Assembly: GCF_000332195.1 (NCBI RefSeq)
Contig: NZ_KB235922.1
Span: forward strand, 5,367,322 to 5,431,321
Direction: 5' to 3'
Length of the DNA: 64,000 bases
DNA from: Pleurocapsa sp. PCC 7319
Lineage (GTDB): Bacteria; Cyanobacteriota; Cyanobacteriia; Cyanobacteriales; Xenococcaceae
Part shown: positions 14,628-25,075 of the stretch, piece after piece
How positions within the stretch are numbered: the stretch's first letter is position 1
Layout of the letters: every line of letters starts with the position of its first letter
Notes under the pieces: model-generated
Seen by the model: only the letters and a program-made list of their open reading frames with translations
What the model was told of the DNA's origin: nothing
Database searches by the model: none
Made by a program: the position numbers and the translations under genes

Positions 14628-14721
14628 TGGTCTGACAAAACTCAAACTTGCACGTATATGCCGCTCACTTTGCGGTGCAGCAAGTTTTTCAACCACGCCT
14701 TTGAAGTCTCCAAGGGTCATA

Positions 14722-14785
14722 TATAGCCGTACAAAGTTGTATTAGGACAAGTTTATTTGATTGCTCATAAGTAACAAGTAATAAG
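14722..14785. repeat. left half of a MITE interrupted by IS110
   Basis: The sequence starting TATAGCCGTACAAAGTT and running through TTATTTGATTGCTC matches the left part of the intact MITE at 27185-27290 with few changes. The match stops where the IS110 left end begins. The right half resumes at ~16434. Confidence 0.8.
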
Positions 14786-14799
14786 CTCCTGAAGGACGC

Positions 14800-15000
14800 T
14801 TTGCGCCCCAAAATAAAGATGAGAAACCAAATTGGTAGACCAAGTATCATGATACGTGGAAATGTTTTCATCACAAAAAAGCCGAAGTTACAATGGTGCA
14901 ACGAACGCCCGAGAATAAGCTTGGTTAGAGGAAAGTGGACAAATAAATTGGTGAAAGGAGAAAAAACCTTATCCCGTTGGAGAGAATGACAAGAGAAAAC
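14800..15000 (+). ncRNA. candidate bridge RNA of the IS110 element
   Basis: IS110-family elements encode a structured RNA in the non-coding end that pairs with target and donor DNA (established for IS621). This segment has no credible ORF and shares blocks with the minus-strand copy at 23341-23521, for example CCGAAG..ACAATGGTG and CCCGA...TGGTT. Between the latter two blocks, 14914-14921 reads AATAAGCT. This is identical to 14780-14787, the flank plus CT core at the left junction, as expected for a left-target guide. The fold and the guide assignment are inference. Confidence 0.5.
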
Positions 15001-15045
15001 CATTCCTCATCGAAAACATTTCCCTATCAAGAGTGAGGGCAAAAA

Positions 15046-16419
15046 ATGAAGCCAATTGGTCGAAGCCAAAAATCCCAGAAAAAAAGTAGCAAAAGACAGG
15101 AGCCAGAAATAAAAGTCATCAATCCGCACTCGGCGGGAATTGATATTGGCTCAAGAGAGCATTGGGTTTGTGTACCTATAGCAGCAACAGAATCTAATGT
15201 TCGTTGTTTTGGGTGTAGTACACCAGATTTACTAGCTCTGGCAAATTGGTTAAGTGAATGCGGTGTGACGAGTATTGCCCTCGAATCGACGGGAGTAGAA
15301 TGGATACCTTTATTTAACATCTTAAGTCAGCATAACTTCCAAGTCTGTTTAGTCAATGCTCACAATGTAAAAACAGTACCAGGAAGAAAAAGCGATGTCC
15401 AAGATTGTCAATGGTTACAACAACTGCATAGTTATGGCTTACTTGCACCTTCCTTTATCCCCGAAGGAGAAATAACTGTACTGAGAAGCTATTTAAGACA
15501 ACGAGAAAATTTGATTCAAGCTAGTTCGACTCATGTGCAAAGAATGCAAAAAGCTTTAACACAGATGAATTTGCAGTTGCATAAAGTCATTAGCGATCTT
15601 ACAGGGGTGACAGGATTAAATATTCTGAGGGCCATTATTGCTGGGGAAAGAAATCCACAAACCTTAGCCAAATTAGCACACCGAAGAATTAAAAGTAGTC
15701 CACAACAAATTAGAGATGCCCTAACGGGTAATTATCGTCCAGAAATGGTTTTTATTTTGCATCAAGAATTATCTTGTTATCAATTTTATCAACAACAAAT
15801 CGGATTATTAGAGGAACAAATCGAACAATGTCTCAGTAAATTGCCCTCCCAAACAAAAGAGACTCCGCCCCTAAATAGCCAGAAAAAGTGTCGTCGCTCA
15901 ATCAAATCAGGGTTCGACTTACATTCTCATCTCTATCGTATTGCGGGAGTAGATTTTACCAGCATTGATGGTTTAAGTGTAGTCACAGTGCAAACCATCC
16001 TCAGTGAAGTAGGATTAGACCCGACTAAATTTAAGAGTGCTAAACATTTCAGCTCTTGGCTCGGATTATGTCCTGGTTGTCGGATTACAGGGGGCAAAGT
16101 TAAAAGTTCTCAGACTCGTCGAGTTAACAATCGAGCTGCAACAGCTTTTCGATTGGCAGCTCAAGCTGTTAGTCGTTCTCATTCAGCTTTGGGCGCATTT
16201 TATCGACGCATTCGCTCCCGTGCTGGCGCACCCAAGGCCATTACTGCTACAGCACACAAAATTGCTCGTCTATTCTATACTCTCTGGACAAAAAAAGAAT
16301 CTTATCTCGATCGTGGAGCTGATTACTATGAACAAAAATATCAAGAAAGACTCATCAAAAATCTCAAGCAAAGAGCAAAATCCCTTGGTTTAGAAGTAGT
16401 TGAGGCATCTTCTACTTGA
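15046..16419 (+). CDS. IS110-family DEDD transposase (bridge-RNA recombinase)
   Basis: The protein has 457 residues. The RuvC-like N-terminal domain shows the DEDD set: Asp33 (GIDIGS), Glu80 (ALESTG), Asp117 and Asp120 (RKSDVQDC). The C-terminal Transposase_20 domain (~295-400) includes GLSVVTVQTILSEVG, FSSWLGLCPG and a KVKSSQTRR segment. One of its serines (354/355) corresponds to the nucleophilic Ser of the family. A ~60-residue central coiled-coil stretch with a polar insertion makes it longer than IS621. The frame is intact, so the element may be active. ATG 15046 is preceded by GAGTGAGGG as a possible ribosome site. Confidence 0.95.
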   Translation: MKPIGRSQKSQKKSSKRQEPEIKVINPHSAGIDIGSREHWVCVPIAATESNVRCFGCSTPDLLALANWLSECGVTSIALESTGVEWIPLFNILSQHNFQVCLVNAHNVKTVPGRKSDVQDCQWLQQLHSYGLLAPSFIPEGEITVLRSYLRQRENLIQASSTHVQRMQKALTQMNLQLHKVISDLTGVTGLNILRAIIAGERNPQTLAKLAHRRIKSSPQQIRDALTGNYRPEMVFILHQELSCYQFYQQQIGLLEEQIEQCLSKLPSQTKETPPLNSQKKCRRSIKSGFDLHSHLYRIAGVDFTSIDGLSVVTVQTILSEVGLDPTKFKSAKHFSSWLGLCPGCRITGGKVKSSQTRRVNNRAATAFRLAAQAVSRSHSALGAFYRRIRSRAGAPKAITATAHKIARLFYTLWTKKESYLDRGADYYEQKYQERLIKNLKQRAKSLGLEVVEASST

Positions 16420-16433
16420 TTTTAGTTTCTGGA

Positions 16434-16485
16434 GAGTAATAAGTAATAAGTAATGAGTGTCCTAATGTAAGTCCGTATTGCTATA
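16434..16485. repeat. right half of the MITE interrupted by IS110
   Basis: AGTAATAAG-type tandem words followed by GAGTGTCCTAA and ending GTATTGCTATA match the right part of the intact MITE at 27185-27290. Both ends of the composite are bounded by TA. Confidence 0.8.
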
Positions 16486-16519
16486 AATGATTAGACAAAC
16501 TTAAACCTATCTGTATGAA

Positions 16520-22119: not shown

Positions 22120-23319
22120 ATGATTTCTGAACGTTCTATTGTTGCTCTTATCTGCCTTGCCTTATCTAATATCGCTAACTGTTCGAGTAGCTTAGCTGGG
22201 GAACCAGAAACTAGCACGTTTTATATCCCGCAAAATAGAGCGATCACTTTAGGGGTGATGACTCTACCAATTTCTGTTGAAAGTAGGATACAGTCATTCG
22301 AGCAACCAGAAATTAATCTTAAAAATAATTTAAATAATCATAATTCTGAGCTGATTTTAGCCCAGAATAAGATTCTGCAACCACACCAGGAAAAACTTAA
22401 ATCAGCAACAAAATCACAAGCAGAGACTAAAGAAGAAATATTAAATAGTCAAGTAACTGTTGAAGAGCCACAGAGAATTAGCAGGCGTTGGTCACTTATT
22501 GGGATGGCTATTACCTTCCTGCTGTCATTGATTATTCTCTGGTCGTTATTTCAAAAAGAAGAGCAAAAACAAGACCGGGAGGTAGACAGTGAATCAGTCT
22601 CATTGCAAACACAAGATAAAAAAAGTGAATTGTTTGATGAGGAACTCATAATTTCGGAGCAGCTCCCCAGAATTACAGTTCTAAATTCTGAGGGAGAGCC
22701 AATCAGCAATCAAAGTGGGAAATCTCGTCAATCTATCGAAGCTATCACCATTGCTAATGCCAATAGCTTTGATGGGCATCAGCCTAAAGCCGATAAGATC
22801 CAAGACTTGATGTCCAAAAATGTTCAGCCGCTGGTAGAAGCCAATCTAAAAGATAGGGGAAAAATAGTAACCTCTAATACAACTGAGATTGATGTTGTGT
22901 TTGAACTAATCAAGGACTTGCAACATAGCGATCTCGATTTAAGACGTAAAGCAATTTGGGAGTTAGCCCAAACAGCAGATTCCAGAGCACTAGAACCCTT
23001 AATGGAAATTATGTCTCAAGTAGATGCCTTAGATAAAAATCTGATTCTCGATGCAATCGCTCAAATTGCTCTACGAAATATTCAACCAATTAATAGTGCT
23101 TTGTTTACTTCTCTACAAGATGCAAATTCTGAAGTGAGAAAAAATGCCATTTGTGATTTGGTCATTCTATATAAACCAGTATCTCAAATCACTGAACGCC
23201 TCAATCAAATGTTGAATGATTCTGATCGAGAGGTACGGCAAACTGCAGAATGGGCATTAAAACGATTTAATCAAACATCCATCTCTTCTATTTCCCAGGA
23301 TTTTGCCAAACATAGTTAA
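22120..23319 (+). CDS. HEAT-repeat protein with signal/anchor and internal TM helix
   Basis: The protein has 399 residues. The N-terminus has a signal-like hydrophobic segment (residues ~6-28, up to SSLAGEP). A second clear transmembrane helix lies at ~128-146 (LIGMAITFLLSLIILWSLF). After an acidic, Gln/Ser-rich linker, the last ~125 residues form HEAT repeats (DLQHSDLDLRRKAIWELAQ, DANSEVRKNAICDLV, DSDREVRQTAEWALKRF). These resemble PBS-lyase-type HEAT repeats of phycobilisome-related proteins, but no lyase residues are identifiable. It is probably a membrane-bound protein-interaction factor. Confidence 0.75.
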   Translation: MISERSIVALICLALSNIANCSSSLAGEPETSTFYIPQNRAITLGVMTLPISVESRIQSFEQPEINLKNNLNNHNSELILAQNKILQPHQEKLKSATKSQAETKEEILNSQVTVEEPQRISRRWSLIGMAITFLLSLIILWSLFQKEEQKQDREVDSESVSLQTQDKKSELFDEELIISEQLPRITVLNSEGEPISNQSGKSRQSIEAITIANANSFDGHQPKADKIQDLMSKNVQPLVEANLKDRGKIVTSNTTEIDVVFELIKDLQHSDLDLRRKAIWELAQTADSRALEPLMEIMSQVDALDKNLILDAIAQIALRNIQPINSALFTSLQDANSEVRKNAICDLVILYKPVSQITERLNQMLNDSDREVRQTAEWALKRFNQTSISSISQDFAKHS

Positions 23320-23340: not shown

Positions 23341-23521
23341 CTCTTGTTGACTCCTCTCTCTCATCAATTCTTTTTTCCTCTCTCCCAGGAACCAGGCTGA
23401 TGATCGGGTGCTTTCACACCATTGTCGCTTCGGTCTTGATGCTAAAATACCTCTCTTAGGGGATCAGGACTGCCTACCCAGTTTCTCATTTTCTTTTTTG
23501 GGCGCGTAGCGTCCTTCAGGT
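23341..23521 (-). ncRNA. transposase-less copy of IS110 left end / orphan bridge-RNA-like segment
   Basis: Read on the minus strand, this segment matches the IS110 left end at 14786-15000 in several blocks: CCTGAAGGACGCT, ATGAGAAAC, CCGAAG..ACAATGGTG, CCCGA...TGGTT and CAAGAG. No transposase or right end follows; the HEAT gene stop is 21 bp beyond. The variable word between CCCGA and TGGTT is TCATCAGC here, against GAATAAGC in the IS. It matches this copy's own outer flank, TTATCAGC, at 7 of 8 positions. It may be a relic solo end or a free-standing guide RNA. The rest of the 23320-23671 gap holds the kinase promoter. Confidence 0.45.
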
Positions 23522-23671
23522 GCTGATAATAAATTCTGATATTACTAAAAAATTAGCGAACTTCCTGAATAATAATAATTATGCGATTCCTAAGAAGTTT
23601 ATGAAGTGTAATGAGTATAAATATTAGTAGGTTGATCGCTTCATCTAGAGGAAATTCAAATAATATTCAAG

Positions 23672-25075
23672 ATGCTCGAAAATCGGGGAGTTACATCGTA
23701 TAGATTTCAGATTCGCATTCTAGCGGTATATTGCTTGTTAATTTTGCTATCTTTTTCTGGTGCAGTGATAGCAATTCGTCGAGTATTATTATTGCGCCTT
23801 AACTATAGATTAGAACAAGCCCTCAATCAAGAGGTACAAGAGTTTCGAGTATTAGTTAATGGGAAAGACCCTGATACAGCTCAACCTTTTGGAGATAATA
23901 TTGCTGCTATTTTTAATGTATTTCTCCGACGCAACATTCCTATTTCCAACGAGTATACAATTGCTCTACTTCCAGAGGGCTTCTATGCTTCTGTCCCCTC
24001 CAAGTTACCAAAATTGATCGACCAAAACTCTCCTATAGTAAGACATTGGCAAAAGCTTACTGTTTCCGAGCGCGGTGAGATAGGTAGTTCTGAAAACCCG
24101 ATTGTTTATTTAGCTGAACCCATTAAGATAAATGACAAAATTAAGGGGATTTTTGTGGTAGCGATCGCAACTGCCAGTGAACGTCAAGAGGTACGTGGAG
24201 CAATCTTGGTAATTATTCGTGTAACTTTAATTACAGTGGGCATCACTTCAATTTTAGCTTGGATTTTTGCTGGTAGAATTTTAACTCCATTACGCTTGTT
24301 AACCAAAACAGCAAGAGCAATTAGCGAGAATAATTTAGATCAAAGGATTAAAGTCCAAGGAAATGATGAAGTTACTCAATTGAGTATCACATTTAATGAA
24401 ATGTTAGATCGATTGCAATCTGCATTTGTTACTCAAAAACAATTTCTTAATGATGTGGGTCATGAGCTAAAAACCCCAATCACCATAATTCAAGGACATA
24501 TTGAATTAATGGGAGATACTCCTGAAGAACAAGAAGAAACCAAGGCAATAGTTTTTGATGAATTAGAACGAATGAATCGTTTAATTGCCGATTTGATGAT
24601 CTTAGCTCAATCCGAACAGCCAGACTTTTTGCACCTTGAATTTACAGCGCTCCACTCTTTGACCGAAAAAATTTATACTAAAGTTCAGGCGATCGCTGAT
24701 CGCCAATGGCGATTAGAGGCAATAGGAAGGGGCAATATCTTAGTGGATCGTCAAAGATTAGTTCAGGCAATTACCAATTTGGCTCAAAATGCTACTAAGT
24801 TTACCAATCCTAAAGATACTATTGCCATCGGTTCTGCTATCGAAGGAAATTATATCCGTTTATGGGTCAAAGATACAGGAAAAGGTATTGCTGAGTCAGA
24901 ACAAGAAAGAATTTTTGAGCGTTTCCAGACAGGATCGAATAATATTGGCACCAATAGTACTGGTTTAGGTCTTTCTATTGTCATTGCGATCGCCCAAGCT
25001 CATGGCGGTACAATCGAATTATCTAGTCGCCTCAATCAGGGATCGAAGTTTACTCTCGTATTACCTCTAGAATGA
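23672..25075 (+). CDS. membrane sensor histidine kinase (HAMP-HisKA-HATPase)
   Basis: The protein has 467 residues. TM1 is at ~15-37, a periplasmic sensor of ~135 residues shows no named fold, and TM2 is at ~172-198. HAMP (~200-250), HisKA with phospho-His264 (VGHELKTPITIIQGH) and HATPase_c follow, the last with N (NLAQNATKF), D-x-G (VKDTGKGIAE) and G (STGLGLSIV) boxes. It should autophosphorylate and pass phosphate to a response regulator; none is adjacent, so it is an orphan kinase. A CACTCCC...GGGAGTG inverted repeat ~35 bp after the stop could serve as a terminator shared with the convergent TPR gene. Confidence 0.93.
   Translation: MLENRGVTSYRFQIRILAVYCLLILLSFSGAVIAIRRVLLLRLNYRLEQALNQEVQEFRVLVNGKDPDTAQPFGDNIAAIFNVFLRRNIPISNEYTIALLPEGFYASVPSKLPKLIDQNSPIVRHWQKLTVSERGEIGSSENPIVYLAEPIKINDKIKGIFVVAIATASERQEVRGAILVIIRVTLITVGITSILAWIFAGRILTPLRLLTKTARAISENNLDQRIKVQGNDEVTQLSITFNEMLDRLQSAFVTQKQFLNDVGHELKTPITIIQGHIELMGDTPEEQEETKAIVFDELERMNRLIADLMILAQSEQPDFLHLEFTALHSLTEKIYTKVQAIADRQWRLEAIGRGNILVDRQRLVQAITNLAQNATKFTNPKDTIAIGSAIEGNYIRLWVKDTGKGIAESEQERIFERFQTGSNNIGTNSTGLGLSIVIAIAQAHGGTIELSSRLNQGSKFTLVLPLE

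What the first reader, a model, noticed from the sequence alone, without database searches (positions are those of the whole stretch)
23341..23530. Transposase-less copy of an IS110 left end whose variable loop tracks its own flanking DNA
Seen: the minus strand of 23341-23521 shares ordered blocks with the IS110 non-coding end at 14786-15000 (CCTGAAGGACGCT, ATGAGAAAC, CCGAAG..ACAATGGTG, CCCGA...TGGTT). The short word between CCCGA and TGGTT differs: GAATAAGC in the IS, TCATCAGC here. In each copy it matches the DNA just outside the element: AATAAGCT at 14780-14787 is identical over 8 nt, and TTATCAGC near 23522-23529 (minus) matches 7 of 8. Known: IS110 elements use a bridge RNA whose target loop pairs with the insertion site. 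Inference: this stretch is the left-target guide, and 23341-23521 is a reprogrammed bridge RNA left without its recombinase. It may be a relic or an RNA served in trans by the 15046 transposase.
Basis: partly seen in the sequence, partly recalled or inferred. Interest (0 to 1): 0.85.

Follow-up and report, generated by a model that had tools for sequence, protein, structure and literature searches.

The report
IS110 relic at an inversion breakpoint
The stretch is the broken front end of an old IS110-type jumping element, still carrying half of its guide RNA, and it sits with a near-identical twin at the two ends of a 67-kilobase piece of chromosome that has been flipped around; it is most likely a scar rather than a working RNA.

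Summary
Window 23359-23529 (minus) is a real IS110 left end: 66% identical to the window's IS, 75% to a left end in another cyanobacterial genus. A target-loop model built without it scores it at 58.2 bits. Its guide ATCATCAG matches its flank ATTATCAG at 7 of 8 places. Guide-flank agreement is general in this clade, as the known bridge-RNA mechanism predicts.

It is not a reprogrammed copy of the 15046 element but a remnant of another IS110 lineage. The target-loop half survives; no donor guide at the expected place, no closing strand and no transposase remnant were found.

Verdict: IS110 relics marking a chromosomal inversion. Service in trans is not excluded but unsupported: 8 of 8 own IS copies carry the other guide and sit at its target.

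By-product: in this clade the right-target guide lies 5' of the left-target guide, the order published for IS1111, although the RNA is upstream of the transposase.

The parts
23378..23524 (-). IS110 left-end segment shared with the twin at C7:5457496-5457650 (inverted orientation): 147 bases, 2 substitutions, starting exactly at the core AG
23359..23529 (-). extent of homology to the left end of another cyanobacterial genus (L053, 75%); about 20 further bases towards 23341 may belong to the relic but are not clearly alignable
23359..23449 (-). target-binding loop of an IS110 bridge RNA, model R1, 58.2 bits
23422..23430 (-). 5' side of the target loop (AAGCGACAA), position of the right-target guide in this clade
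   Evidence: role
23397..23404 (-). 3' side of the target loop, left-target guide ATCATCAG
   Evidence: role
23523..23530 (-). flank word ATTATCAG, 7 of 8 identical to the guide; AG (23523-23524) is the core
22120..23319 (+). HEAT-repeat-like gene (label by eye), one side of inversion breakpoint 1; in 17 of 26 family relatives it is followed directly by the glycosyltransferase gene that here lies next to the twin
23672..25075 (+). histidine kinase gene (label by eye), the other side of breakpoint 1
14786..16434 (+). full-length IS110 copy (1649 bases between the two AG cores), transposase 15046-16419 (PF01548, PF02371), inserted in a 7-base tandem repeat
14912..14919 (+). left-target guide AGAATAAG of the full IS
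14885..14893 (+). 5' side of the target loop of the full IS (AAGTTACAA), right-target guide
14977..14984 (+). left-donor guide TTGGAGAG of the full IS, matching its right end CTGGAGAG (7 of the 7 places scored)
14858..14869 (+). 5' strand of the 12-pair stem that closes the full bridge RNA; partner at 15012-15023; the relic lacks the partner

Best explanation
The stretch is a decayed IS110 left end. An IS110 of another lineage than the window's IS once inserted here, its bridge RNA carrying left-target guide ATCATCAG. It lost the donor-binding half of the RNA, the transposase and the right end. A second remnant of the same element lies 67 kb away in the opposite direction, and the two now sit at the two breakpoints of an inversion of about 66.7 kb. 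Shown: homology, fold, guide-flank match at this copy, the twin, the inversion, and that it is derived in this genome. Inferred: the inversion arose by recombination between two inverted left-end copies (ordinary homologous recombination through about 147 shared bases is the simplest), and the RNA is not functional today.
For: Homology and model score. Twin with 147 shared bases and 2 substitutions, opposite orientation. In G020:C335 eight own genes from 5378214 to 5390638 run in one direction and the contig then goes straight on with the own genes at 5457540 to 5453307 in reverse; G024 and G019 agree with fewer genes. The HEAT and glycosyltransferase genes are neighbours on one strand of one contig in 17 of 26 relatives by the coordinates; in 7 they lie on different contigs of drafts, 2 gave no HEAT match. 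Missing parts: the best 12-base closing stem scores 14 against a shuffled mean of 15.0, while own IS, L053 and L098 score 28, 29 and 23; no donor-guide motif at the place (91-93 bases on) where own IS, L053 and L098 have it; no transposase remnant below E 0.2 in 7 kb around the relic or in L002.
Against: The second ancestral junction (hybrid-cluster-protein gene next to the kinase gene) was not seen in any relative: not in the 14 relatives with the former, nor upstream of the kinase in the ten closest kinase loci. That side may have been rearranged more than once. The two remnants end at different places on the donor-loop side, so one simple history is not proved. The twin's flank does not fit the guide. 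No stretch with a real closer relative was found, so the parent element is known only through relatives about 75% alike, and in L053 itself the transposase frame is only 175 aa.
Confidence: 0.8

Rival explanations
1. Recombinase-made, duplicative inversion: a left end between the HEAT and glycosyltransferase genes attacked the word ATTATCAG beside the kinase gene, guided by ATCATCAG, and the event left one old and one new flank at each copy.
For: The shared segment starts exactly at the core AG, where the recombinase cuts. The new flank (kinase side) fits the guide at 7 of 8 while the old one (glycosyltransferase side) does not. IS621 can be made to invert DNA (PMC11208160, passages).
Against: A conservative exchange would leave only one left end, so a duplicating step not described in the passages and sections I read is needed. 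Both remnants lack a right end. A duplication of 147 bases is also what two old copies would give.
Confidence: 0.15
2. A non-autonomous mini-element: about 150 bases between AG-CACCTG and an internal right-end-like GGTTCCTGGGAG-AG move with help from a full IS.
For: Two copies with almost the same ends; the inner GGTTCCTGGGAGAG resembles a right end (GTTTCTGGAGAG in the window IS) by eye. Short elements with both left and right ends seem to exist in G026 (L043, L045, by eye).
Against: Copy 1 runs on beyond that point with left-end homology. Only two copies, both at the inversion breakpoints, none elsewhere in the genome. GGTTC is explained by the target-loop stem.
Confidence: 0.07
3. A living trans-acting target guide: the remnant is transcribed and lends its target loop to the recombinase of the window IS.
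For: All model pairs are kept in the relic, and one of the two substitutions between the copies keeps an inner-stem pair (A-U to G-U). Separate target and donor loops support IS621 recombination in vitro (PMC11208158, passages).
Against: 8 of 8 own IS copies carry the guide AGAATAAG and follow GTAATAAG. No promoter-like excess. No donor guide, no closing stem. Two copies say nothing about selection.
Confidence: 0.05

Closest known systems
IS110-family bridge RNA / seekRNA (IS621: PMC11208160; ISEc21: PMC11187229)
   Same: Non-coding left end upstream of a DEDD transposase; loop with two guide strands; left-target guide equals the flank; shared core dinucleotide; donor guide equals the element's right end.
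   Different: The relic has only the target loop. [quoted passage not shown] for IS621 and ISEc21 the published order is the reverse.
IS1111-family seekRNA (PMC11187229)
   Same: Order of guides: top-strand match 5' of bottom-strand match.
   Different: Here the RNA lies upstream of the transposase, and the protein is 457 aa (IS1111 proteins: 330-350 aa in that paper).
IS copies at inversion breakpoints (homologous recombination between inverted repeats; repeat-mediated inversions in Neisseria, PMC3454330, passages)
   Same: Inverted copies of one mobile sequence at both ends of the inverted segment.
   Different: The repeats here are only left-end fragments.

Membership tests
IS110-family bridge RNA (target loop) | conserved two-strand loop between an outer and an inner stem | tested here: met
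   R1 match 58.2 bits, no broken pair
IS110-family bridge RNA (target loop) | left-target guide equals the left flank | tested here: met
   7 of 8 at the window copy; family test. At the twin 4 of 8: not met there
IS110-family bridge RNA (target loop) | right-target guide fits the right flank | not testable with these tools
   the relic has no right end, so its right flank is unknown
complete IS110 bridge RNA | donor loop with donor guides and closing stem | tested here: not met
   with own IS, L053 and L098 as positive controls
autonomous IS110 element | DEDD transposase gene and right end | tested here: not met
   tblastn no hit below E 0.2; one weak right-end-like word 2.4 kb away at copy 1, none at copy 2
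non-autonomous IS110 mini-element | both ends and several dispersed copies with the same boundaries | tested here: not met
   two copies only, different right boundaries
IS-flanked inversion | inverted repeats at both breakpoints and the old order in relatives | tested here: met
   one of the two old junctions seen, the other not

The most novel reading that the evidence does not exclude
The inversion was made by an IS110 recombinase: a left end on one side of the segment was joined, guided by its own target loop, to the matching word ATTATCAG on the other side, with duplication of the left end. Remnant target loops could then remain as guides that, together with donor loops from other copies, steer genome inversions.
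Probability: 0.12. Interest if true: 0.75.

Novelty: new member of a known kind. Interest (0 to 1): 0.42.

Why it matters
As a relic it is ordinary, but it shows how bridge-RNA left ends outlive their recombinases and mark genome rearrangements. The family comparison made to judge it has more reach: in 40 non-redundant elements of this long-transposase IS110 clade, cyanobacterial and other, the right-target guide is 5' of the left-target guide. If that holds up, guide order does not follow the place of the RNA in the element, and a programming rule taken from IS621 would be wrong for this clade.

Tried and rejected
Rejected: (a) a copy of the window IS with a changed guide: homology is higher to another genus. 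(b) My own first idea that the stretch is a complete mini-element ending at GGGAGAG: copy 1 goes on with left-end homology. (c) An intact empty site for the window copy: kinase upstream regions of relatives align only in pieces (only L149 resembles the flank, by eye). (d) Rfam: no match in the window at gathering scores. (e) A donor-loop test of right-donor guide against left end failed because the pattern caught 2 of 42 elements. The left-target matrix is circular (site chosen by best match) and is not used. Single-cell controls for the IS621 order there reached z 4.7 and 4.0 without stratifying; with stratified diagonals the IS621 order reaches z 1.1 and the 5' identity control 2.5. (f) Papers on solo, miniature or non-autonomous IS110 bridge RNAs: searches gave none that I could recognise from the listings; one search held 531 papers of which 20 were listed, so this is weak.

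Rows dropped: one search used 75 entries, reduced to 50 distinct guides; six guides were entered by hand where the pattern failed (L068, L070, L071, L074, L078, L086) and three came from L053, L054 and L063. Seven of the non-cyanobacterial loci gave no loop pattern (L094, L104, L114, L137, L138, L141, L143); L084 and L121 were left out by eye. Right-target test: 60 elements with a candidate right end, 43 with score 7 and a core AG or AA, 41 distinct; 40 in the stratified run.

Full report
What is there. The window lies in a cyanobacterial genome (G000, 7.39 Mb; my placing, from the kin of its IS110). A full IS110 copy occupies 14786-16434, with transposase 15046-16419 (457 aa; PF01548 E 1e-21, PF02371 E 5.4e-14). 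The genome holds 7 full copies and one truncated copy. In 8 of 8 the left flank ends in GTAATAAG and the guide is AGAATAAG; in the 7 with a right end the element ends CTGGAG followed by AGTAA. AG is thus present at both junctions and is taken as the core. The targets are 7-base tandem repeats; in the six IS-free copies printed these lie inside a short repeat found in dozens of places.

The finding. Minus strand 23359-23529 is a left end: 118 of 178 identities with the window IS and 130 of 173 with L053 from another genus. Model R1, made from 28 other left ends (alignment A1; consensus of 10 pairs with changes on both sides at 2), finds in the own genome exactly ten places up to E 1: the eight IS copies (69.4 bits), the window relic (58.2) and a second relic (37.8). 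It is, however, a relative and not a copy of the window IS.

Guide and flank. The words beside the loop were tested over the family. For 50 distinct guides the best 8-base match in the region before the loop sums to 332; reshuffled guides give 280.6 +- 4.6, at most 295 in 1000 runs. This is the known IS110 rule (PMC11208160, sections 6, 7 and 12 read). The window relic fits its flank at 7 of 8, its twin at 4 of 8.

What is missing. In the own IS, L053 and L098 the loop is enclosed by a 12-base stem (scores 28, 29, 23); the relic's best candidate scores 14, below the mean of shuffled DNA (15.0). The donor-guide motif stands 91-93 bases after the loop start in the same three controls; the relic has none there, only two words 134 and 179 bases on, inside the neighbouring gene, and the twin has none. 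No transposase remnant scores below E 0.2. One weak right-end-like word 2.4 kb away at copy 1 is taken as chance; copy 2 has none.

The inversion. The twin (C7:5457496-5457650, plus) shares 147 bases from the core AG onward with 2 substitutions; copy 1 then continues as a left end while copy 2 passes into DNA that by eye is the terminator region of the hybrid-cluster-protein gene, comparable in G020. The gene before copy 1 (HEAT-like) and the gene beside copy 2 (glycosyltransferase) are neighbours on the same strand in 17 of 26 family relatives by the coordinates (7 on different contigs of drafts, 2 without a HEAT match). G020:C335 is collinear with the own genome over eight genes up to the HEAT gene and then goes on with own genes 5457540 to 5453307 in reverse order; G024 and G019 agree with fewer genes. 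The own genome therefore carries a derived inversion of about 66.7 kb whose two ends are the two relics. Against a simple story: the other old junction (hybrid-cluster-protein gene next to the kinase gene) was seen in none of the 14 relatives that have the former, nor beside the kinase in the ten closest kinase loci.

How it most likely came about. Two inverted left ends recombined. Whether by the cell's homologous recombination (most likely, inferred) or by the recombinase cannot be decided. For the latter speak the exact start at the core and the good fit of the kinase-side flank; against it that a conservative exchange would not leave left ends at both junctions.

Relics elsewhere. Among 21 loci with a loop match (two own relics and 19 from relatives) examined, 12 had a transposase match in the roughly 1.5 kb of DNA held beyond the loop and 9 had none; these nine include the two own relics and one low-scoring hit (L194) that is probably chance. 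Solo loops are thus common, which fits decay.

Guide order. Right ends were located by the donor guide, not by the target guide. In 41 distinct elements the four places r6-r3 of the 5' side complement the first four bases of the right flank in 91 of 164 cells against 42.9 +- 6.0, at most 67 in 5000 reshuffles. With reshuffling inside groups (40 elements): z 6.2; cyanobacteria 40 of 60 against 20.7 (highest of 5000: 39); others 47 of 100 against 25.7 (highest 45); the IS621 order reaches z 1.1. Siddiquee et al. (PMC11187229; abstract and passages, sections 6, 12 and 14 read) give bottom-strand match first for the IS110 member ISEc21 and top-strand match first for IS1111. This clade has the IS1111 order with the RNA upstream of the gene. 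The figure with three further IS110-group RNAs (Extended Data Fig. 10 of PMC11208160) is not held, so I cannot say that it is unpublished.

Literature seen: PMC11208160 (outline, sections 6, 7, 12, part of 43, passages), PMC11187229 (abstract and passages, sections 6, 12, 14), PMC11208158 and PMC3454330 (passages); the rest as search listings only.

Noticed in passing
window 14786-16434 and loci L066-L145: In this IS110 clade the 5' side of the target loop fits the right target and the 3' side the left target: IS1111-like guide order with an upstream RNA.
   Followed up: partly
window 14720-14785 and 16437-16510; L017-L038: The full IS sits inside a short repeat with 7-base tandem units (GTAATAA) that recurs in dozens of places in the genome, mostly without the IS.
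   Followed up: partly
L043 and L045 (G026): About 100-base stretches that look like an IS110 left end joined to a right end without a gene: possible true mini-elements (by eye).
   Followed up: no
L204, L205 (G069): Two similar loops without transposase whose guide side reads TAATATCCGC, that is without the usual AG core, and which share DNA beyond the loop.
   Followed up: no
L063 (G283): Left end fused to the end of a transposase gene: an internal-deletion derivative (by eye).
   Followed up: no
C7:5390.7-5457.5 kb of the own genome (window 23.3 kb onward): Derived inversion of about 66.7 kb; its second old junction was not found in relatives.
   Followed up: partly
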